This document shows positions 36,036 to 49,732 of a stretch of DNA of 64,000 nucleotides, one piece after another (the first letter of the stretch is position 1; every line of letters begins with the position of its first letter). The stretch is taken from positions 186,001-250,000 of the forward strand of contig NZ_WOTN01000003.1 in assembly GCF_010993745.1 (NCBI RefSeq), in the 5' to 3' direction. Origin of the DNA: Fodinicola acaciae. Lineage in GTDB: Bacteria > Actinomycetota > Actinomycetes > Mycobacteriales > HKI-0501. The notes under the pieces were generated by a model. The model was not told where the DNA came from. It was given only the letters and a program-made list of their open reading frames with translations, and made no database searches. A program made the position numbers and the translations under genes.

Positions 36036-37248
36036 ATGACCACTCCTTCCGTCGCCACCGCGCCAGTCGGTGACCCGTGGCCGGAGGAAGACCCGAACGT
36101 GCTGGCCGCGATGCTGCGTGTCGCCGAGCGGGAGTATCGCGAGGCCGCGGCCAGTCGCCGGGTGCAGCGCGCTCGCGCGTTCTGTCCGGGCATGGCGTTG
36201 AACGGTGAGATGTTGGCGCCGAAGCTGGACCTCGCCGCCCAAGCCATGCGCCGCGGCGACCTCGCGGACTCGCAGTTGGACGCGATCCGTACGGTGATCA
36301 CGAGGTTGCCGGCGCACGTGGACTTCCAGCAGCGCCGCGAAGCCGAAGCGGCCATCGTGGAAGGCGCCAAGCATATGGATGCCGGCCGGCTCTATCGGCT
36401 CGGCACCCGGCTGCATGCCTACCTGGACCCCGACGGCGCCGCGCCATCGGAGAAAGAAGACGCCAAGCCGCGCCGGGAGCTGCACTGCACACCGGTCGCG
36501 ACGGCCGCCTCGCGTTGCGCGGCATTCTCGACGCCGAGACCGGCAGTCTGTTGCAGGACGTGCTCTCGCCACTGGCCAAACCAGAGGGTGAGGACGGTAA
36601 GCCCGATCCTCGATCAGCTGCCGAGCGTAACGGTGACGCGCTTGCCGACATCCTGAATCTCGTGGCTGATGCGGGGAAGTTGCCGATCCAGGGCGCCGAG
36701 CGGCCGCACCTGACGGTGACGATCTCCTGGGAGATGCTCCGCGACTGCCTGGGTGTGGCGCGCGCGTACGAGGGCCCGACCATCAGCCCCGAAACCGCCC
36801 GCCGCCTCGCCTGCGACGCGGACATTATTCCGGTCATCCTCAACTCCGAAGGCGTACCACTGGACGTCGGCCGCAAGGAACGGCTGGCCGGCCCAGAGCT
36901 GCGGAAAGCGTTGATCGCCCGCGACAAAGGCTGCACCCGGCCCGGATGCACGCGGCCCGTCCGGCACACGCGGTCGACCACATCGTGTCGTGGGTGGACG
37001 GTGGCACCACCTGTCTGGAAAATTGCGTGTTGCTCTGCGACCGGCACCATCGCGAAATTCACCACACCGACTGGACCATACGGATGAACAACGGCCACCC
37101 TGAATTCACCCCACCAATCGACGTGGACTACGAGCAAAAGCCGCTCCGAAATGCCTATCACCTGTACGGCTGAACCGAACAGGTGGACCACCAACCAACA
37201 ACACAAACGCTCGCTCCTCGCCTCAGCAAACCGAACGCTGAGGCGAGG
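35964..37248 (+). repeat. DUF222/HNH (13E12-like) element, copy 1
   Basis: This unit is repeated at 51336-52600. The shared block begins with a TTCGC-N5-GCGAA hairpin, includes a decayed HNH gene and ends with a CCTCGCCTCAGC hairpin (37216-37248). The units are close to identical over long stretches, pointing to a recent duplication or gene conversion. No target-site duplication was visible. Confidence 0.8.
36036..37173 (+). pseudogene. DUF222 / HNH endonuclease, copy 1 (two frameshifts, one deletion)
   Basis: It begins MTTPSVATAPVGDPWPEED and ends ...NAYHLYG. Compared with copy 2, one C is lost near 36485, one base near 36975, and an in-frame 117-base segment is missing after residue ~37. 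The reading therefore moves through all frames. The remaining blocks show the DUF222 helical domain, a CTRPGCTRP zinc-type cysteine pair and the HNH nuclease core (DHIVSWVDGGTTCLENCVLLC..., RHHREIHH). 13E12-family proteins are abundant in actinobacteria. The gene is not expected to give a functional product. Confidence 0.85.
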
Positions 37249-38093: not shown

Positions 38094-38229
38094 CGTCGCC
38101 GTTCCTTCGTGAGATCGGGATGGGTGCCAATGAGCCTGCGACGGATCGGCTCATACGTCCAATGCCAAAGTTCATGCGGTTCCATAGATAAGGTCAATAC
38201 GCGCTGGACAGCGATTGGAGAATGACGGC

Positions 38230-38835
38230 ATGTTGCGGGTTCTGGTCGCCGAGGACATGCGGATCCTGCGCGACACGCTGGTTGCCGTCATCAACCTGGA
38301 GGACGACCTCGAGGTGGTCGCCGAGGTGGCCAGCGGAGACCAGATCGTGGCAGCGGCGCTGGAACACCGGCCTGACGTGGCCGTGCTGGACGTCGACCTG
38401 CCCGGCGTGGACGGGCTGACCGCCGCGGCGACGCTGCACGACGAGCTGCCGGCCTGCCGCGTACTGATCCTGACCGCGCTCGGCCGGCCGGCCCATCTGC
38501 GGCAGGCGGTCGCCGCGCACGTCGCCGGGTTCATGGTCAAGGACACGCCGTCCGACCAGCTGGTCGCCGCTGTACGCCGAGTCGGCGCCGGTGAGCGGGT
38601 GTTCGACCCGGCGCTGGCGGTGGCCGCGCTGGAGACGGCGACCAGTCCCTTGTCCGATCGCGAGCGCGAGGTCCTCAAACGACATGCCGAAGGTGCGTCG
38701 GCGGTGGAGATCGCGGCCGCGCTCCACCTGTCGTACGGCACCGTACGCAACTACCTGGCGGCAGCCGTGACCAAGCTTGGAGCGCGCAACCGCGTCGACG
38801 CGGCACGCATCGCGCGCGAAGCCGGCTGGCTCTAG
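38230..38835 (+). CDS. NarL/LuxR-type response regulator
   Basis: 201 residues from the ATG at 38230 (a TTG at 38215 is less likely). The receiver domain spans residues 1-120, phosphoacceptor D54 in VLDVDLPG, acid pocket near E8-D9, and conserved K101-type residue in VKDTPSD. The C-terminal LuxR helix-turn-helix (about 140-200) reads LSDREREVLKRHAEGASAVEIAAALHLSYGTVRNYL. It probably receives phosphate from the kinase at 39185-41164. Its stop codon lies in the palindrome GTGCA-N3-TGCAC, which heads the next gene. Confidence 0.92.
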   Translation: MLRVLVAEDMRILRDTLVAVINLEDDLEVVAEVASGDQIVAAALEHRPDVAVLDVDLPGVDGLTAAATLHDELPACRVLILTALGRPAHLRQAVAAHVAGFMVKDTPSDQLVAAVRRVGAGERVFDPALAVAALETATSPLSDREREVLKRHAEGASAVEIAAALHLSYGTVRNYLAAAVTKLGARNRVDAARIAREAGWL

Positions 38836-38905: not shown

Positions 38906-39292
38906 ATGGGTACGAGGGTCCTGATCGCCGAGGACGTGGCCGTGCTGCGGGAGACGCTGGTCGCGCTCCTGCAGCTGGAGGCCGACCTGGACGTCGTGGC
39001 CGCGGTCGCCGGCGGCGATCACATCCTGCCGGCCGCGCTCCGCCACCGGCCCGACGTGGCGCTGCTCGACATCGACCTGCCGGCCGTCGACGGCCTCACC
39101 GCCACCGCCGAGCTGCGCGTACGGCTGCCGGCCTGCCGCGTCCTGATCCTCACCGGGCTGGCGATGCCGGACCGCGTCGACCGGTCACGTGCCGCCGGAG
39201 CCGCCGGCCTCCTGGTCAAGGACACTCCGGCCGACTTCCTCGCCGACGCCGTACGACGCGTCGCGCGCGGCGAGCGTGTCTTCCCCGGCTGA
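38906..39292 (+). CDS. Receiver-only response regulator, lacking the LuxR DNA-binding domain
   Basis: 128 residues. It matches the receiver domain of the preceding response regulator along its whole length (D55 in LLDIDLPA; VKDTPAD), but stops at GERVFPG, exactly where the linker to the LuxR domain would begin. The stop sits within the 3' end of the converging kinase gene. It may be a remnant left by a rearrangement, or it may work as a stand-alone phosphate sink or competitor in the same signalling pathway. Confidence 0.75.
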   Translation: MGTRVLIAEDVAVLRETLVALLQLEADLDVVAAVAGGDHILPAALRHRPDVALLDIDLPAVDGLTATAELRVRLPACRVLILTGLAMPDRVDRSRAAGAAGLLVKDTPADFLADAVRRVARGERVFPG

Positions 39293-41164
39293 TGGCACGC
39301 GTACGGTCAGCTCGAACCGATCGCCGTCGCGGCTCGCCGACACCTCGCCGCCGAGCGCCGAAGCTCGGCTGGACATGTTGGCCAACCCACGGCCCCGCCG
39401 CTCAGTCGCCTCATCGCGTACGCCGTCGTTGACGACTCGCACGCCATCGATGGCGACCTCGATCTCGCACCATCTGGCATCAGAATGGCGCAGCACGTTG
39501 GTGACCGCCTCGCGCAACACGGTGGCCAGCACCGCATCGACCTGCTCAGGGAGCGCCGCCGTGCCGCGTACGTCCACCGACACGCCGGCGGAGGTCAGCA
39601 GCGTACGAGCGGCCGCCAGCTCGCTCTGCAACGAGACGGCGCTCTCACCGACGGTGACCGAGCGGAGATCGGCGCGCGCCTGTCCGGCCAGCCGCAACAT
39701 CGCCGCCAGCTCACCGGATGCACGCTCGTCGTCGCGGCCGACCAGCTTGCCGGCCAGGTCGCTTTTGAGTGCCAGCGCGGACAAACCGAGGCCGAGCAGG
39801 TCGTGCGTGTCCTGCGCGACGCGCTCTCGCTCGCGGGCCAACGCGGCACTGGCCAGCTGCCGGCGGACCGCCTCGACCTGCTCGGCGAGATCCGGCAGCC
39901 GTGACAGTCCGTAGACGACAATGCCGGCGGTCGCCGCCGCACCGGCCTGATAGAGGACGGTCGCGCTGTCCGTGGCGACCCCGTAGACGGCCCGGTTGCC
40001 GATGCCGTAGTAGAGACCGAGCACCGGCAGGCTCCACGCCACGCCGACGCCTGTGACGACCGCGACGAAGGCGCTCCACCCCCAGCGTCGTGGCAACAGC
40101 AGAACGGCCGAACCGGCCGCGAAACCGGCCAGCGTGAGGATGTTCCAGTCGTACGCGGGAAACCACGCGAACGGCAGCAACGTCTGGACGGCCAGCGTGA
40201 AAGGCCAGCCGCGTGGCCGGGCGGCGGCCCGCCAGCCGAGGCTGTGATGGAGCTGCAGCGCGACCAGCACGGCGATGCTGGCGATCGCCACCGCGGAGCC
40301 GCCGGCGACCAGGACGTTCGCGGTCAGGATCACCGCCTGGCCGGCGAGTACGACCGCGAGCGTCACCCTCGCCAGCCGAGGCGCGACGCCGGAGGTCGAC
40401 GGCAAGGACGCAGGTCGCGGCTGGTCGGCGGCGACGGCCGTACGCACCTGCTCGAGACCGCGGCGCGCCGCCTTCGCCGCCGCCGTCAGCTCGGCACGAG
40501 CCGCGTCACGGTCGGTCGGCAGCACCGCGATGGCCGCGCGGACGTGCTCGGTCGTCGCCTCAAGGTTGTCGCCGATGGCCGTACGCAGCCGGTCGGCCGA
40601 CCAGCGCCGCTCCGCTGCGACAGCCAGCTCGGCGAGCTCGGTCCTGGCCGCGCGCAGCGTGGCGACCAGGTCGGCCGGCCGCACCAGTCCAAACAACGCC
40701 AGGCCGGTGACGACCGGCGCGACCAGCATCCAGGTGTAGAACGCGCTTTTGGGACCATTCCACGGAATTCCCAGCACCGCGATGCGTGCGGCCTCGACGA
40801 CGACAACCGCGCCGAAGAGCGGCCACGACCTCGGCGCTCGTACGGTCAACAGCAACAGACCGGCCAACAGACCGGCCGCCGCGTTGATCCAGCGTTGACC
40901 GAAAACCGCGAGCGGCGCGTACGTCAGCATCGCCTGCACGGCCAGCAGCCAACCGGCATGCCGCGCCCAGAACGCGCGACCGAGCGGCACCGCGTAGAGC
41001 AGCGGCAACACGAACAGCGCCGCCAGCACCGCGCCACCGCCGGGGCCGCTCCAGTAGATCGCGTTGCCGAGCCGGGTCAGCAGCGTCAGGCCGAGAAACG
41101 CCACCGGAAGCACCTGCACGAGTCGGTACGCCGGCGTGAGCCGCTCGCTGTCCGTCAACCGCAC
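39185..41164 (-). CDS. Membrane histidine kinase (HisKA_3 type) with internal duplication
   Basis: 659 residues, GTG at 41164. The first ~160 residues hold about five membrane segments, then a soluble helix (about 175-255) that looks like a degenerate dimerisation domain without its histidine. A second set of about five segments follows (about 260-415), then the true H-box with H454 in AQDTHDLLGLGLSALALK. The ATPase domain has N-box REAVTNVLRHSDA and G-box GRGLANMSSRASALGGEV. The last ~30 residues are read from DNA antisense to the truncated response regulator, so the original stop is probably lost. It partners with the LuxR-type regulator. Confidence 0.9.
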   Translation of the reverse strand: MRLTDSERLTPAYRLVQVLPVAFLGLTLLTRLGNAIYWSGPGGGAVLAALFVLPLLYAVPLGRAFWARHAGWLLAVQAMLTYAPLAVFGQRWINAAAGLLAGLLLLTVRAPRSWPLFGAVVVVEAARIAVLGIPWNGPKSAFYTWMLVAPVVTGLALFGLVRPADLVATLRAARTELAELAVAAERRWSADRLRTAIGDNLEATTEHVRAAIAVLPTDRDAARAELTAAAKAARRGLEQVRTAVAADQPRPASLPSTSGVAPRLARVTLAVVLAGQAVILTANVLVAGGSAVAIASIAVLVALQLHHSLGWRAAARPRGWPFTLAVQTLLPFAWFPAYDWNILTLAGFAAGSAVLLLPRRWGWSAFVAVVTGVGVAWSLPVLGLYYGIGNRAVYGVATDSATVLYQAGAAATAGIVVYGLSRLPDLAEQVEAVRRQLASAALARERERVAQDTHDLLGLGLSALALKSDLAGKLVGRDDERASGELAAMLRLAGQARADLRSVTVGESAVSLQSELAAARTLLTSAGVSVDVRGTAALPEQVDAVLATVLREAVTNVLRHSDARWCEIEVAIDGVRVVNDGVRDEATERRGRGLANMSSRASALGGEVSASRDGDRFELTVRVPSAGEDTLAARDASYGVGEEVGRSVLDQEAGGSGGT

Positions 41165-41321: not shown

Positions 41322-43070
41322 ATGCGAGGATGGCGCAGGTTTGCTTTCCACTATCTGGAAATGACCGTGGCGATGCTGGTCGGCATGGCCGTGCTCGGCG
41401 GCGCGCTGCGGCTCGCCCTGGCAGCGGCCGGCGTGCCGTACTCGATGGACCGCTATCCGGTCCTGGTCACCCTGGAGATGGGCGTGACCATGGCGGTCGC
41501 GATGGCGGTGTGGATGCGCGTACGCCGGCACGGCTGGCCGCCGACGGTGGAGATGAGCCTGGCAATGCTGGTGCCGGCGGTCGCGGTCGCGCCGCTGGTG
41601 GCGTGGAACGTGCTGGACGGCATGTCCTCGATGGTCGTCGAGCACACCACGATGTTCGTGCTGATGCTTGTCGTGATGCTGCGGCGGCGCGACGAATACC
41701 TGGCGCATCACCACGGCAGCGGCCGGCTGGCGAAAGCCGTACGACGTGTGCTGCCGGCGTTTGGCCGTGGGCTGTTTGTCCTGCTCTCCATCGCGATCCT
41801 GCCGTCCGCGGCGTTCGCCATCGGCTCGGTCAGCTACGAGCACAGCCGCTATGCCCCTGCCGCGTCGAGCGCCGTCGTCAATGTCGCGGCGCCGGTGTAC
41901 GACCCGAGCAAACCGACCGTCGCGATCGTCGTCGGCAACGATGGCGCCAATGTCGCCGACACTCTCGTGCCGTACGCGGTGCTGTCGGCCACCGGCAAGG
42001 TCAACGTCTACACCGTCGCGGCCGAGCGGCGTCCGGTCACGCTGCTGGGTGGGCTCGACCTGGTGCCGGATCTCAGCTTCGACCAGCTCAGGCAGCGCGT
42101 CGGCGCGCCGAGCGTGACGATCGTGCCGGACATGCCGCCGTCGGACACGGCAGACGCCAAGGTGGCGGCGTGGCTGCGGAGTGTTTCCGGTCACGGCCTG
42201 GTGCTCGGCGTGTGCACCGGCGCGCGGCTGCTCGCCAAAGCCGGCCTGCTCGACGGCCGCCCGGCGACCTCGCACTGGTATCGGCTTTCCGAGCTGCAGC
42301 ACAAATTTCCGGCGGTCAACTGGCAGCGTGGAGTGCGTTACCTCGATGACGGCGACCTGATCACCACCGGCGGACTGTTGTCGTCAGTGGACGGTACGCT
42401 CCGCGTCATCGAGCGGCTGCTCGGCACCGACGCCGCTTCGAAGGCCGCCACCACGGTCGCCTGGCGCTATTACTCGCCCGGCAAGCCGGCCGCGCTGCCG
42501 GTCGAGCGGCTGACCGCCAGCGACGCGATCACCCACATCCTCAACAGCGGCTTTCGTGCCAACGACACCACTGTCGGCGTCGTGCTCTCCGACGGCGTCG
42601 ACGAGCTCGACCTGGCCGCCGCCTTCGACCCGTACGGCGAGATCAAGGCCGCGCGTACGCTCGCCATCAGCGCCGACGGCGGCACCGTACGCTCGCGGCA
42701 CGGCCTGACCTTCGTGCCTCGCGCCGGCATGGACGCGGCCGGCCGCGTCGATCACCTGCTGATTCCGCGCAGCGACAAGGATTCCGATCTCTCCGCGGCG
42801 CGGCGAGCGCACGTGCCGGTCGCGTATCTGGCGCACCAGTCCGGCTTCGCGTTCGACGCGGCGCTGCGCGAGCTGGCGCTCACGACCGACACGACGACCG
42901 CGCACTGGGCCGCAAAAATCCTCGAATATCCCAGTGCCGACCTGGACCTGGCCGGACCCGGCTGGCCGTGGCTGCCGACCGTACGGCCGGCGCTGCTCGG
43001 CCTGACCGGACTCGCGATCGCCCTGCTGGCTGTGTTCCTCTGGCGACGCGGTCATAAGTCGACGGTCTGA
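41322..43070 (+). CDS. Membrane protein with two DJ-1/PfpI-like domains
   Basis: 582 residues, ATG with a weak ribosome-binding region (GAGGAG). The N-terminal ~170 residues contain five hydrophobic segments. Four of them carry a repeated pattern: YLEMTVAMLVGM, TLEMGVTMAVAM, TVEMSLAMLVPA and VEHTTMFVLM, placing Glu-Met pairs inside the membrane. Two DJ-1/PfpI-like (class I glutamine amidotransferase) domains follow (about 195-370 and 385-545). The first has an apparent nucleophile C298 in LGVCTGARLLAKAG; the second lacks a cysteine there. A last membrane segment ends the protein. It diverges from the kinase, sharing its palindrome. Possible roles are a stress sensor or an enzyme such as a deglycase, all inference. 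Confidence 0.85.
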   Translation: MRGWRRFAFHYLEMTVAMLVGMAVLGGALRLALAAAGVPYSMDRYPVLVTLEMGVTMAVAMAVWMRVRRHGWPPTVEMSLAMLVPAVAVAPLVAWNVLDGMSSMVVEHTTMFVLMLVVMLRRRDEYLAHHHGSGRLAKAVRRVLPAFGRGLFVLLSIAILPSAAFAIGSVSYEHSRYAPAASSAVVNVAAPVYDPSKPTVAIVVGNDGANVADTLVPYAVLSATGKVNVYTVAAERRPVTLLGGLDLVPDLSFDQLRQRVGAPSVTIVPDMPPSDTADAKVAAWLRSVSGHGLVLGVCTGARLLAKAGLLDGRPATSHWYRLSELQHKFPAVNWQRGVRYLDDGDLITTGGLLSSVDGTLRVIERLLGTDAASKAATTVAWRYYSPGKPAALPVERLTASDAITHILNSGFRANDTTVGVVLSDGVDELDLAAAFDPYGEIKAARTLAISADGGTVRSRHGLTFVPRAGMDAAGRVDHLLIPRSDKDSDLSAARRAHVPVAYLAHQSGFAFDAALRELALTTDTTTAHWAAKILEYPSADLDLAGPGWPWLPTVRPALLGLTGLAIALLAVFLWRRGHKSTV

Positions 43071-43964: not shown

Positions 43965-44020
43965 AGCGCTAAACCTCGACGATCTTGACGAGGTCTTCTC
44001 CACCAACTTTCAGGAGTGAC

Positions 44021-44395
44021 GTGACAAACAACGAACAGCTGGCATTTCTCGACAACATCGAGGCCGACCTGGCCACCACCCCGGCGAAGAGCCGCACCCC
44101 GGGCGGGATCCGGCGGCGCATCGGCATGGGGCTGGCGATGGCCGCGACCGGCATCGGATTCCTGGCCATGACCGGCACCGCCGCGCACGCCGACAATCCT
44201 TACTGTGGCGTGCCAAACCCGGTGACCTACGACCACACCAAGTATTGCACCGCGCTCGCCTACTATCATTTCGAATATCTCGGCCAGACGACCGCCGGAC
44301 CCGGCGGCCAGCGGACGTGTTATCAGTTCTGGCGTACGTTCGTCGACTGGGGCTGCGGTTCCGACCCCGGCCGGTTCGCGTCGGTCTGCGTTTAG
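44021..44395 (+). CDS. Small secreted protein with five cysteines
   Basis: 124 residues from the GTG at 44021, with CAGGAG five bases upstream. A ~28-residue acidic lead (EQLAFLDNIEADLATT) precedes an Arg-rich Sec or Tat-type signal (IRRRIGMGLAMAATGIGFLAM) and a cleavage site after AHA. The mature ~67 residues are aromatic-rich and have five cysteines (in PYCG, KYCT, RTCY, WGCG and SVCV), an odd number. No family is recognised. The unusual long lead before the signal and the glycosyltransferase gene downstream suggest a modified secreted peptide, which is inference. Confidence 0.7.
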   Translation: MTNNEQLAFLDNIEADLATTPAKSRTPGGIRRRIGMGLAMAATGIGFLAMTGTAAHADNPYCGVPNPVTYDHTKYCTALAYYHFEYLGQTTAGPGGQRTCYQFWRTFVDWGCGSDPGRFASVCV

Positions 44396-47091: not shown

Positions 47092-48363
47092 ATGGACAGG
47101 CGAACGCTTTTGACCGGCGCTGCCGCGGTTGGCGCGTCGATAGCGGCCGGCGGTCTGGCGACCAGTGCTGCGCCAGCCTCGGCAAGCAGCGCCGGCACAC
47201 TTGGCGACCTGCGTGAGGCGATGGCGGCGCGAGTCGCGCGCGGCGAACTGGTCGGCATGGTGTACGCGGTCGCGCGGCAGGGCCGCGTACATGTCGACAC
47301 GGTCGGCACGATGTCGCTGGACAGCGACCAGCCGATGCGGCGCAGCACGCCGTTCCGGATCGCCTCGCTGACCAAGCCGGTCGTCTCGACGGCCGCGATG
47401 ATGCTGGTCGAGGACGGCCGGCTGGCGCTGGACGAACCGGTCGACCGGCTGTTGCCGGAGCTGGCCGGCCGGCGCGTACTGACGAAAATCGACGCGCCGC
47501 TCGACCAGACGGTGCCGGCTCGGCGGCCGATCACCCTGCAGGACCTGCTGACCCTGCGGATGGGCTACGGCATGATCTTCGAGCCGAGCTTCGAGCCGTC
47601 GTATCCGGTCATCAAGGCCGCGAGCGACCTGCAGCTGGTGATGGCGCAACCGGATCCGCGTACGCCGTGGCGTCCGGACGAGTGGATCCGCCGCTTCGGC
47701 ACGCTGCCGCTGATGGACCAGCCCGGCGAGCACTGGCGTTACAACGCCGGGATGCTCGTGCTGGGCGTACTGGTCGCGCGGGCCGCTCGCCGTCCACTTG
47801 GCGACTTCCTGGCCGAGCGGATCTTCCGGCCGCTCGGCATGCGACAGACCGGTTTCTGGCTGCCGGCCGCGCAGGCACGCCGGTTGCCGGACCTCTACGT
47901 CGGCGACCCACAGACCGGCAAACTCCAGAAAGACGTCAGCTCGCCGCCGCAGGTGTGGTCGCGGCCGCCGGCTTTTCCGTCCGCTGCCGCCGGTCTGGCC
48001 TCCACCATCGACGATTACCTTGCTTTCAGCCAACTCCTGCTCAACAGGGGCGTCAGTCGGCACCGGCGGCTGCTGTCGGCGGAGTCGGTCGACCTGATGA
48101 CGACCAACCACCTCACGCCGCAGCAGCTCGCCGCGGTCGGGCCGGGACCGCTGGGCAACCGCGGCTGGGGATACGGCATGTCCGTGTCGGTGACACCCGA
48201 CGCCGTCTCCGCTCCTGGCCGCTATGGCTGGGAAGGCGGCTATGGCACGCTGTGGTTCAACGACCCGCACCGCGATCTCACCGTGATCGCCATGACGCAG
48301 ACCGTCGACTTCCTGTTCAACGGCGGAGCCGACGAGTTTCAGCGGCTGGCGGTCACAATCTAG
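47092..48363 (+). CDS. Tat-exported serine hydrolase of the beta-lactamase/esterase family
   Basis: 423 residues from the ATG at 47092 (an upstream ATG at 47071 would lengthen the lead). A twin-arginine signal is present: MDRRTLLTGAAAVGASIAAGG. The class C beta-lactamase/EstB fold has the catalytic S92-L-T-K95 and Tyr in YNAG (about residue 221). The usual HTG-like motif is changed. Members of this family are esterases or peptidases rather than true beta-lactamases. A paralog at 52711-53868 has no signal peptide. Its stop overlaps that of the converging phosphoesterase gene by three bases. Confidence 0.87.
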   Translation: MDRRTLLTGAAAVGASIAAGGLATSAAPASASSAGTLGDLREAMAARVARGELVGMVYAVARQGRVHVDTVGTMSLDSDQPMRRSTPFRIASLTKPVVSTAAMMLVEDGRLALDEPVDRLLPELAGRRVLTKIDAPLDQTVPARRPITLQDLLTLRMGYGMIFEPSFEPSYPVIKAASDLQLVMAQPDPRTPWRPDEWIRRFGTLPLMDQPGEHWRYNAGMLVLGVLVARAARRPLGDFLAERIFRPLGMRQTGFWLPAAQARRLPDLYVGDPQTGKLQKDVSSPPQVWSRPPAFPSAAAGLASTIDDYLAFSQLLLNRGVSRHRRLLSAESVDLMTTNHLTPQQLAAVGPGPLGNRGWGYGMSVSVTPDAVSAPGRYGWEGGYGTLWFNDPHRDLTVIAMTQTVDFLFNGGADEFQRLAVTI

Positions 48364-49313
48364 GCCAGCCGTACGTCCTTGACGGCGAGCGAATGTTGGC
48401 CTTTCTGGTAGGAAACCTCGCGGATGCCCAGCGCCTGCCCGAGCTTTCCGGCCGGCAGCACCACCGGTGTCGGCGCCGGTCCATGACCCGGCGCCGGCAG
48501 CGGGTACGCGGTGGTCGTCGCGCTGTGGAAGGTCACGTTTCCCTCTGTTTTGGTGAAAAGCTGGTGCACATGACCGTTCAGGCAGGTGACGGAGGAAAAC
48601 CGGCGCAGATAGCTGAGGGCCTGGGTGGCGTCGTCGGTCCCCCAGCCCCAGGCCGGATACATCGCGAACAGCGGAATGTGGCTGAAAACCACGATCGGCG
48701 TGTCGGAGGACAGTGACGCCACGTCTTTACGAATGAACTCCAGCTGTTCGGCGCCGAGATGTCCGAGCTTTTCCAGGCTCAGCGTGTTGACCAGCGACAG
48801 GAAATGTACGCCTTTAACGTCGAAGCTGTACCATCCGTCGCCGCGCGTACCGGCACCGAAGAACTGGCGATATTTCTGTCCGGTGTCGTCGATCGAGTCG
48901 TGCTCGCCGGGGACGGTCATCGCCTTTCCGGTGCGCAGTCCGCTCATCATCTGCTTCACCTGGTCAAACTGCGCCTTGGTGGCCAGATGCGTCAGGTCTC
49001 CGGTGTGCATCACGAAATCCGGCCGGCGCGGCAGCGCGTTGATCTGGTTGATCGCATGCGAAAACGACTCGGTGACGGCGGTGTTGGCCGCTCCGGTGAA
49101 ACCGAGATGGCTGTCGCTGACCTGTACGAACCGCAGCGCGTTCGGATCGTCGGCGGCCGGCGGCGCGGACTGGCCGGCCACATGGCTGATCACCTCACCA
49201 CCGGCGACCACCAGCACGACCGCGGAGCCGAACCAGGCCGTGTGCCGCAGCAACTGCCGGCGGCTCATGCCGTGCGGATCCTGTTTCTCCTCCGTGTTTT
49301 CCTCTGTGGTCAT
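48360..49313 (-). CDS. Tat-exported metallophosphoesterase
   Basis: 317 residues, ATG overlapping the cupredoxin stop (ATGA). A twin-arginine signal (MSRRQLLRHTAWFGSAVVLVV) directs export. The calcineurin-like motifs appear in order: VSDSHLGF (DxH), HTGDLTH (GDxx), PGEHDS (where GNHD is usual), FSHIPL and NGHVHQLF (GHxH). The Asn-to-Glu change in the third motif would alter the metal site or select a different metal. It is the last gene of the sigma/Rieske/cupredoxin operon. Confidence 0.88.
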   Translation of the reverse strand: MTTEENTEEKQDPHGMSRRQLLRHTAWFGSAVVLVVAGGEVISHVAGQSAPPAADDPNALRFVQVSDSHLGFTGAANTAVTESFSHAINQINALPRRPDFVMHTGDLTHLATKAQFDQVKQMMSGLRTGKAMTVPGEHDSIDDTGQKYRQFFGAGTRGDGWYSFDVKGVHFLSLVNTLSLEKLGHLGAEQLEFIRKDVASLSSDTPIVVFSHIPLFAMYPAWGWGTDDATQALSYLRRFSSVTCLNGHVHQLFTKTEGNVTFHSATTTAYPLPAPGHGPAPTPVVLPAGKLGQALGIREVSYQKGQHSLAVKDVRLA

Positions 49314-49732
49314 CGCGTCACCACCACGGTCCCGGTCATGAACGGGTGGATCGTACACAGATACTGATATGTCCCCGGAGCGGTGAAAGCGTGCCGGTAG
49401 ACGCCGCCGGTGTTCAGCGTCGGCGACCGCAGCTGGCTGGCCGGCGGCACCGACGTGACCGTATGCGCGTCCTGGTCTGCGTTCGTCCACGTCACGGTCA
49501 CACCGGCCTTCACGGTGATCGTCGCTGGCACGAAGGCGAAGTTCTTGATCGAGACGGTGTTCGTGGCGACCGGTGCGGCGTTCTGGGTCGCGCTCGGCGC
49601 CGGCATGGACATCCCCGGCATCGGCTGGCTGGCGCCGGCCGGAGCCGCCGGCGCGGTCGACCCGCAGCCGGCGAGCAGTCCGAGGCTCACCCCGCCGGCC
49701 GCGCAGGCGACCCCGATGGCAGTTATCCGCAT
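49310..49732 (-). CDS. Cupredoxin-domain lipoprotein (blue copper)
   Basis: 140 residues. The signal peptide ends in the lipobox LLAGC, so the protein is lipid-anchored outside the membrane. A Met/Pro-rich linker (QPMPGMSMPAPSATQ) follows. The cupredoxin domain (about 55-140) holds type 1 copper ligands: His in DAHTVTS, and Cys-His-Met in YLCTIHPFM. It likely carries electrons or copper. It sits 57 bases after the Rieske gene stop and overlaps the phosphoesterase start. Confidence 0.9.
   Translation of the reverse strand: MRITAIGVACAAGGVSLGLLAGCGSTAPAAPAGASQPMPGMSMPAPSATQNAAPVATNTVSIKNFAFVPATITVKAGVTVTWTNADQDAHTVTSVPPASQLRSPTLNTGGVYRHAFTAPGTYQYLCTIHPFMTGTVVVTR

What the first reader, a model, noticed from the sequence alone, without database searches (positions are those of the whole stretch)
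41322..43070. Membrane protein fusing a four-fold Glu-Met repeat domain to tandem DJ-1/PfpI domains
Four membrane segments carry the same in-phase motif (L/V)-E-(M/H)-x2/3-(A)M-x2/3-M, giving intramembrane Glu and Met residues that could coordinate copper or another metal. They are joined to two DJ-1/PfpI domains, the first with a nucleophile-elbow cysteine (C298 in GVCTG), the second without. DJ-1 proteins are normally cytosolic. From the position of the membrane segments the DJ-1 region would be on the outer face if the fifth segment is counted as crossing. I know of no characterised protein with this plan. It may be a metal- or oxidant-sensing membrane protein controlled by the adjacent kinase.
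Basis: partly seen in the sequence, partly recalled or inferred. Interest (0 to 1): 0.72.

Follow-up and report, generated by a model that had tools for sequence, protein, structure and literature searches.

The report
Met-laddered membrane module fused to DJ-1
This actinobacterial gene joins a small undescribed membrane protein lined with conserved methionines to a pair of DJ-1-type domains that probably sit outside the cell, and in related bacteria the two halves occur as neighbouring separate genes, which suggests a metal- or toxin-handling device that can be tested.

Summary
Window 41322-43070 (+) is one 582-aa gene: four membrane helices with Met at every fourth position, a fifth helix, a DJ-1/PfpI domain with the only Cys (C298), a second, shortened DJ-1 domain without Cys, and a C-terminal helix. 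The Met ladder is nearly invariant in 95 aligned rows; "Glu in all four helices" is not (only E13 and E77). The DJ-1 tandem belongs to a mostly exported, membrane-anchored subfamily, so the outer-face guess is supported. In 80 named loci the four-helix gene lies within two genes of a related histidine kinase (42), or beside or fused to a DJ-1 protein (33, of which 28 are divergent AraC-type regulators with a DJ-1 domain; 3 have both), 8 neither; genes five or more away show 11 of 747 and 2 of 747. Multicopper oxidase genes lie within three genes in 5 loci. Best reading: an uncharacterised envelope module in which a Met-lined membrane part, probably for Cu(I), works with a surface DJ-1 enzyme or ligand binder. 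Metal, transport and substrate are inferred, not shown.

The parts
41322..43070 (+). fused gene, 582 aa (stop included)
   Evidence: same fusion in L041, L047, L072 and, degenerate, L146
41322..41717 (+). residues 1-132: four-helix Met-ladder domain (family without a Pfam or NCBIfam match at a convincing level)
41349..41417 (+). TM1, H10 E13 M14 M18 M22
41463..41519 (+). TM2, M53 M57 M61 M65; R68 and H70 follow in the loop
41547..41606 (+). TM3, E77 M78 M82 P85
41628..41684 (+). TM4, H108 M111 M115 M119
41760..41825 (+). TM5 (residues 147-168), aligns with the N-terminal anchor/signal of unfused relatives
41907..42485 (+). DJ-1/PfpI domain 1 (about residues 196-388), D213 and C298 invariant in 29 of 29
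42213..42215 (+). codon of C298, nucleophile elbow GVCTG
42549..42941 (+). DJ-1 domain 2 (about residues 410-540), shortened, no Cys, E428 invariant in 29 of 29
42990..43052 (+). TM6 (residues 557-577), C-terminal anchor
39185..41164 (-). divergent HisKA_3 histidine kinase, 659 aa
   Evidence: related kinase within two genes in 42 of 80 loci
38230..38835 (+). LuxR-type response regulator (the ORF may start at 38215)
   Evidence: related regulator within two genes in 41 of 80 loci
38906..39292 (+). receiver-only second response regulator, overlaps the kinase 3' end
   Evidence: a 131-aa counterpart in L041; my gene caller did not call it

Best explanation
It is a cytoplasmic-membrane protein of a regulated envelope module. 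The N-terminal domain is a four-helix Met-lined channel, carrier or store for a soft metal, most likely Cu(I), with E13 and E77 near the cytosolic side and H108 further out. A fifth helix carries the chain out of the cell, where an isocyanide-hydratase-like DJ-1 domain (D213, C298) plus a degenerate second DJ-1 domain act on or bind a small molecule or the metal itself, and a sixth helix anchors the end. Expression is set by the divergent two-component system. Shown by computation: architecture, conservation, fold of domain 1, gene context. Inferred: topology, metal, transport, catalysis and regulation.
For: Met positions nearly invariant: M57, M65, M78, M82, M115 in 95 of 95 rows, M61 94, M53 and M111 93, M119 91 of 95 (the scan selected on a TM1 pattern, so TM1 is judged on the 14 rows of A2, found without it: M14, M18, M22 14 of 14; three weak or truncated hits, in G054, G390 and G379, were left out of A2). 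Fusion in 3 of 80 named loci plus the window plus one degenerate case. As separate genes, the four-helix and DJ-1 tandem genes are next-door on one strand in 7 further loci (L027, L028, L029, L031; L144, L145, L147) and divergent neighbours in an eighth (L044). D213 aligns with the hydratase Asp that the PDB titles call D17 and C298 with its C101; both are 29 of 29. Unfused tandems: N-terminal hydrophobic stretch in 20 of 24, C-terminal in 19 of 24. Kinase, regulator, DJ-1 and a membrane protein of about 186 aa make up 13.3, 13.3, 10.8 and 11.4% of 315 genes at distance 1-2, against 1.5, 2.0, 0.3 and 0% of 747 genes at distance 5 or more. Multicopper oxidase genes: 5, all within 3 genes of a four-helix gene, none further off; all 5 have Cu-oxidase domains; CueO is the best NCBIfam profile for the one tested, below its cut-off. 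The 186-aa partner keeps H147 39 of 39, H154 36 of 39, C169 39 of 39, D173 39 of 39.
Against: No direct metal evidence. Multicopper oxidases occur in only 3 of the 80 systematically taken loci, two of them Jiangella, and the count of 5 includes the loci through which the link was first seen. In the loci with AraC-type regulators no multicopper oxidase was found; other copper genes were not searched for. One fusion (L146) has a weakened Met motif. L143, the closest DJ-1 relative in the tree (69% identity), has no four-helix gene that tblastn could find. T299, the residue after the Cys, is variable (T in 4 of 29), so isocyanide hydratase activity is not implied. The Ensifer tandem as annotated has no N-terminal hydrophobic stretch (0.83), and L044 as called here (1.1), L122 (1.22) and L154 (1.52) fall below my threshold of 1.6.
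Confidence: 0.4

Rival explanations
1. The protein is a co-sensor: the Met-lined helices or the outer DJ-1 domain detect a ligand and pass the signal to the neighbouring HisKA_3 kinase.
For: Kinase gene within two genes in 42 of 80 loci, 35 of them divergent at -1; DJ-1 domains are parts of AraC-type regulators, which are also found here (28 of 80 loci divergent at -1; all 28 with an AraC-type helix-turn-helix).
Against: Of 80 loci 33 have a DJ-1 gene or fusion, only 3 of them with the kinase as well, and 8 have neither, so the four-helix protein does not need this kinase; two unrelated regulator types sharing one neighbour look like regulators of a common target.
Confidence: 0.2
2. The DJ-1 part is the business end: a surface enzyme against electrophiles (glyoxal, isonitrile, quinone), and the four helices are a carrier for the same or a related soft compound rather than for metal.
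For: Cys and Asp of the DJ-1 active site invariant in 29 of 29; fold match to isocyanide hydratase and DJ-1; DJ-1 genes of 221-232 aa directly downstream of the four-helix gene in 4 Actinomadura loci (one of them checked by Pfam).
Against: Does not explain why Met, rather than any hydrophobic residue, is kept at a dozen positions.
Confidence: 0.25
3. The fusion is an artefact of annotation or a one-off gene joining without function.
For: Fusions are few (3 of 80 named loci).
Against: The window fusion and those of two Streptosporangiaceae and one Pseudonocardiaceae genome fall in one supported clade together with one unfused member, and a fifth fusion lies elsewhere in the tree; the halves are neighbours in other lineages.
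Confidence: 0.03

Closest known systems
Isocyanide (isonitrile) hydratase, DJ-1 superfamily (PDB 3non and relatives)
   Same: Domain 1: fold (Z 23.5, 24% identity over 203 residues), Asp and Cys positions, AGLL-G-ATxHW stretch
   Different: Membrane-anchored, predicted outside the cytosol, followed by a shortened second DJ-1 domain; residue after Cys variable; activity unknown
AraC-type regulators with a DJ-1 domain (FtrA, GbdR; GlxA family by recall and by one plasmid annotation)
   Same: Closest curated profiles to domain 1 (FtrA E 9.4e-21, 74 bits, below its cut-off of 425); often the divergent neighbour of the four-helix gene
   Different: No helix-turn-helix in the window protein; surface location predicted
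Plant tandem DJ-1 proteins (Arabidopsis DJ-1d, 4ofw)
   Same: Two DJ-1 domains in tandem; Foldseek alignment over 376 columns (E 1.3e-12, 14% identity, TM-scores only 0.34 and 0.39, rmsd 13)
   Different: The plant protein has two full domains (recalled); here domain 2 lacks the elbow segment
Ctr1/SLC31 copper transporters
   Same: MxxxM motifs in membrane helices (Ctr1 detail recalled; papers with both terms only in the search listing)
   Different: Four helices in one chain with Met ladders in all four; no match to such a family listed
Small multidrug resistance proteins (EmrE)
   Same: Four helices, about 120 residues, Glu in TM1 (EmrE detail recalled)
   Different: No match to such a family listed for 14 members; Met ladders absent in EmrE (recalled)

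Membership tests
DJ-1/PfpI superfamily (domain 1) | Pfam match above gathering score | tested here: met
   57.2 bits against 26.6
DJ-1/PfpI superfamily (domain 1) | fold and nucleophile-elbow Cys | tested here: met
   Z 23.5 to isocyanide hydratase; C298 in 29 of 29
DJ-1/PfpI superfamily (domain 2) | fold | tested here: inconclusive
   profile match E 2.1e-9 to the DJ-1 domains of neighbouring regulators and enzymes and 3.6e-7 to domain 1; structure model only partly confident there
DJ-1/PfpI superfamily (domain 2) | nucleophile-elbow Cys | tested here: not met
   segment missing in the profile alignment; no second Cys
Isocyanide hydratase | Asp17 and Cys101 equivalents | tested here: met
Isocyanide hydratase | Thr102 equivalent | tested here: inconclusive
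   Thr in the window, but T in only 4 of 29 relatives; its importance is recalled
Isocyanide hydratase | activity on isonitriles | not testable with these tools
   needs an enzyme assay
Ctr1/SLC31 copper transporter | sequence match to a family model | tested here: not met
   no such family among the Pfam matches listed for 14 members at E up to 10 (HMMER's filters drop most matches above 0.1)
Ctr1/SLC31 copper transporter | three helices per chain (recalled) | tested here: not met
   four helices in this domain
Ctr1/SLC31 copper transporter | trimer, copper transport | not tested
   no multimer modelling or assay
Small multidrug resistance (EmrE) | sequence match to a family model | tested here: not met
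   no such family among the Pfam matches listed for 14 members at E up to 10
Small multidrug resistance (EmrE) | fold | not tested

The most novel reading that the evidence does not exclude
A single-protein surface copper-acquisition device: the outer DJ-1 domain, an isonitrile-hydratase relative, hydrates or opens an isonitrile copper chelator (chalkophore) and hands the released Cu(I) to the Met-lined four-helix channel fused to it. An isonitrile chalkophore and an isonitrile hydratase are known from Streptomyces thioluteus (titles in the reference list of PMC10971408, seen).
Probability: 0.1. Interest if true: 0.9.

Novelty: new variant of a known kind. Interest (0 to 1): 0.6.

Why it matters
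It gives an actinobacterial membrane family without a convincing Pfam or NCBIfam match (304 relatives in one scan; the 80 that were kept carry actinobacterial names) a first testable role, points to an exported, membrane-anchored branch of the DJ-1 superfamily, and the natural fusion says that the two act together. If the Met ladder carries Cu(I), it would be a new type of bacterial copper membrane protein; how bacteria take copper across the inner membrane is only partly known (my recall).

Tried and rejected
Pfam and NCBIfam on the four-helix family: nothing convincing (DUF202 best E 0.014 in 3 of 14, DUF5823 E 0.0016, MFS_1 E 0.003 and FliP E 0.024 in one member each; NCBIfam no match for 3 members). 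Fold search of the whole first model: DJ-1 proteins plus pre-60S ribosome factors for the four helices (Z 7.7, within the range the tool calls unspecific). Full-length AlphaFold model: DJ-1 part unusable (mean pLDDT 56, only 5 tandem rows), replaced by a second job with DJ-1 domains of neighbouring regulators and enzymes added. Whole-hairpin duplication TM1-2/TM3-4: only a 20-column TM1/TM3 match. Four-helix remnant in L143: none found. Promoter scan: none; two terminator-like sites against a shuffle mean of 0.6 (sd 0.7), not followed. Plasmid search for the four-helix domain: one hit, an 11.9-Mb Nonomuraea record, unannotated there. Literature: searches (open-licence PMC only; one search held no paper) showed no paper on this architecture among the listed titles and abstracts; most subscription papers are not held. 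Seen as passages only: PMC3941957 (a review saying that DJ-1 can bind copper and mercury), PMC10971408, PMC7558416.

Full report
What is there. The frame 41322-43070 (+) is one open gene of 582 codons plus stop. It reads: four membrane helices (residues 2-121; AlphaFold2 confidence 86-95 per block of ten up to residue 120), a basic link with three His (122-146), a fifth hydrophobic stretch (147-168), a DJ-1/PfpI domain (Pfam 200-352, E 2.4e-15), a second region (about 410-540) and a last hydrophobic stretch (557-577) with a short tail. My gene caller prefers a start at 41361, which would cut off H10 and E13; both residues are kept in relatives, so I take 41322.

The Met ladder. Residues 1-132 hold 16 Met, the other 450 residues hold 2. 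The scan of the GTDB species genomes with the family alignment found 304 relatives, of which the best 80 were kept. That scan selected stretches by a TM1 pattern, so TM1 cannot be judged on it. In 95 aligned rows the Met of TM2, TM3 and TM4 are nearly fixed: M57, M65, M78, M82, M115 in 95 of 95, M61 94, M53 and M111 93, M119 91. In the 14 rows of alignment A2 (window plus 13 found by ordinary similarity search; three weak or truncated hits, in G054, G390 and G379, were left out) M14, M18, M22 and E13 are 14 of 14, E77 12, H108 12, M53 and M111 12, but E52 and E107 only 2 each. The Met lie at i, i+4, i+8, that is on one face of each helix; that these faces meet in the bundle is inference.

The DJ-1 half. 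Domain 1 is closest to isocyanide hydratase: Z 23.5, rmsd 2.7, 203 residues, 24% identity for the model of residues 140-582 (mean pLDDT 76.8, blocks mostly 83-96 in domain 1). Its Asp (D213) and Cys (C298) fall on the hydratase's Asp17 and Cys101 and are invariant in 29 of 29 tandem relatives. Domain 2 is a DJ-1 relative by profile (E 2.1e-9 against the DJ-1 domains of neighbouring regulators and enzymes, 3.6e-7 against domain 1, E 0.86 against the unrelated helix domain), but the alignment jumps over about 60 residues that include the nucleophile elbow. It keeps an invariant residue of its own, E428 (29 of 29), and H460 (26 of 29).

Topology. The N-terminus, the loop between helices 2 and 3 and the link after helix 4 hold 3, 2 and 6 Lys/Arg, the other two short loops 1 and 0, which puts both ends of the four-helix domain in the cytosol and the DJ-1 region outside. 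The unfused relatives agree: 20 of 24 have an N-terminal and 19 of 24 a C-terminal hydrophobic stretch, a relative from the window's order begins with a twin-arginine and lipobox-like signal (L026), and Sphingobium, Neorhizobium and Burkholderia relatives begin with signal-like stretches by eye. Against: the Ensifer protein as annotated does not, and L044, L122 and L154 fall below my threshold.

Fusion and separation. In L027, L028, L029, L031 and L144, L145, L147 the halves are neighbouring genes on one strand; in Virgisporangium (L044) they diverge. On a tree of 29 DJ-1 tandems the window and the three named fusions form one supported clade of 5 with the unfused L143; L146 lies outside it, so the tree asks for two label changes, but its starred branches do not rule out one origin. 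L143 lacks a four-helix gene as far as tblastn shows.

Neighbours. In the 80 named loci, a related histidine kinase lies within two genes in 42 (35 divergent at -1; 40 of the 42 match HisKA_3), a related response regulator in 41, a membrane protein of about 186 aa in 36, a DJ-1 protein or fusion in 33 (28 a divergent regulator at -1), a multicopper oxidase within three genes in 3; 8 have neither kinase nor DJ-1; only 3 have both. The 28 regulators and the 9 beside DJ-1 tandems all carry both a DJ-1 and an AraC-type domain (37 of 37). Counts at distance 1-2 against 5 or more: kinase 42 of 315 and 11 of 747, regulator 42 of 315 and 15 of 747, DJ-1 34 of 315 and 2 of 747, 186-aa protein 36 of 315 and 0 of 747. 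Contig ends cut some loci short, related species are not independent, and the kinase, regulator and 186-aa models were built from these same neighbourhoods. Of 17 genomes of the class (of 394) that hold a DJ-1 tandem at E up to 1e-50, 5 have it fused or next to the four-helix gene (window, L144-L147), 9 next to an AraC-type DJ-1 regulator (L148-L155, L030), 3 neither (L143, L032, L156; L156 has a DJ-1 protein of 248 aa next door). Thus the DJ-1 tandem, the four-helix protein and the DJ-1 regulators look like three corners of one functional network, and the window combines two of them in one chain beside a two-component system.

Metal. Met ladders in membrane helices, multicopper oxidase genes (L029, L040, L042, L043, L044: 5 hits, all within three genes, 0 at distance 4 or more; Cu-oxidase domains in all 5; CueO best profile for L042, below its cut-off), and His, Cys and Asp fixed in the 186-aa partner point to copper. 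cueR is the divergent neighbour of the Ensifer DJ-1 tandem, a single case. A cupredoxin gene lies 6 kb away in the window, too far to count. A review says that human DJ-1 can bind copper (passage, PMC3941957). All this is circumstantial.

Verdict. The finding is genuine and better than chance; the domain plan is not a one-off. The best account is a regulated envelope module with a soft-metal-binding membrane part and a surface DJ-1 part. The membrane family has no convincing Pfam or NCBIfam match, and I found no paper on it in the searches listed under Tried and rejected.

Noticed in passing
38906-39292 (+): Receiver-only response regulator (128 aa) whose 3' end overlaps the kinase gene on the other strand by 108 bases; Thermoactinospora (L041 12647-13042) has a similar 131-aa one beside a full regulator.
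   Followed up: partly
39185-41164 (-): The kinase is 659 aa with an extra N-terminal membrane and helix region that by eye looks like a degenerate kinase half; kinases near the other fusions have 611-795 aa, Jiangella and Virgisporangium ones 661-666, while the median of the kinase cluster is 406.
   Followed up: partly
L045 9423-9983 and the other 38 proteins of that cluster: A membrane protein family of about 186 aa with fixed H147, W150, D151, C169, D173 and nearly fixed H154; directly downstream of the four-helix gene in most kinase-linked loci. One member has a weak, below-cut-off match to DUF6010 over that stretch, another none.
   Followed up: partly
L028, L029, L044, L047: DUF899 genes (confirmed by Pfam in all four) recur within a few genes of the four-helix gene.
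   Followed up: partly
36036-37087 (+): Two overlapping frames that look by eye like a broken DUF222/HNH-type gene.
   Followed up: no
48360-49732 (-): Calcineurin-like phosphoesterase with a Tat-like start next to a cupredoxin-like, lipoprotein-like gene (Pfam; signals by eye).
   Followed up: no
43985-44395 (+): Small secreted-looking protein of 136 aa with several Cys, no Pfam match.
   Followed up: no
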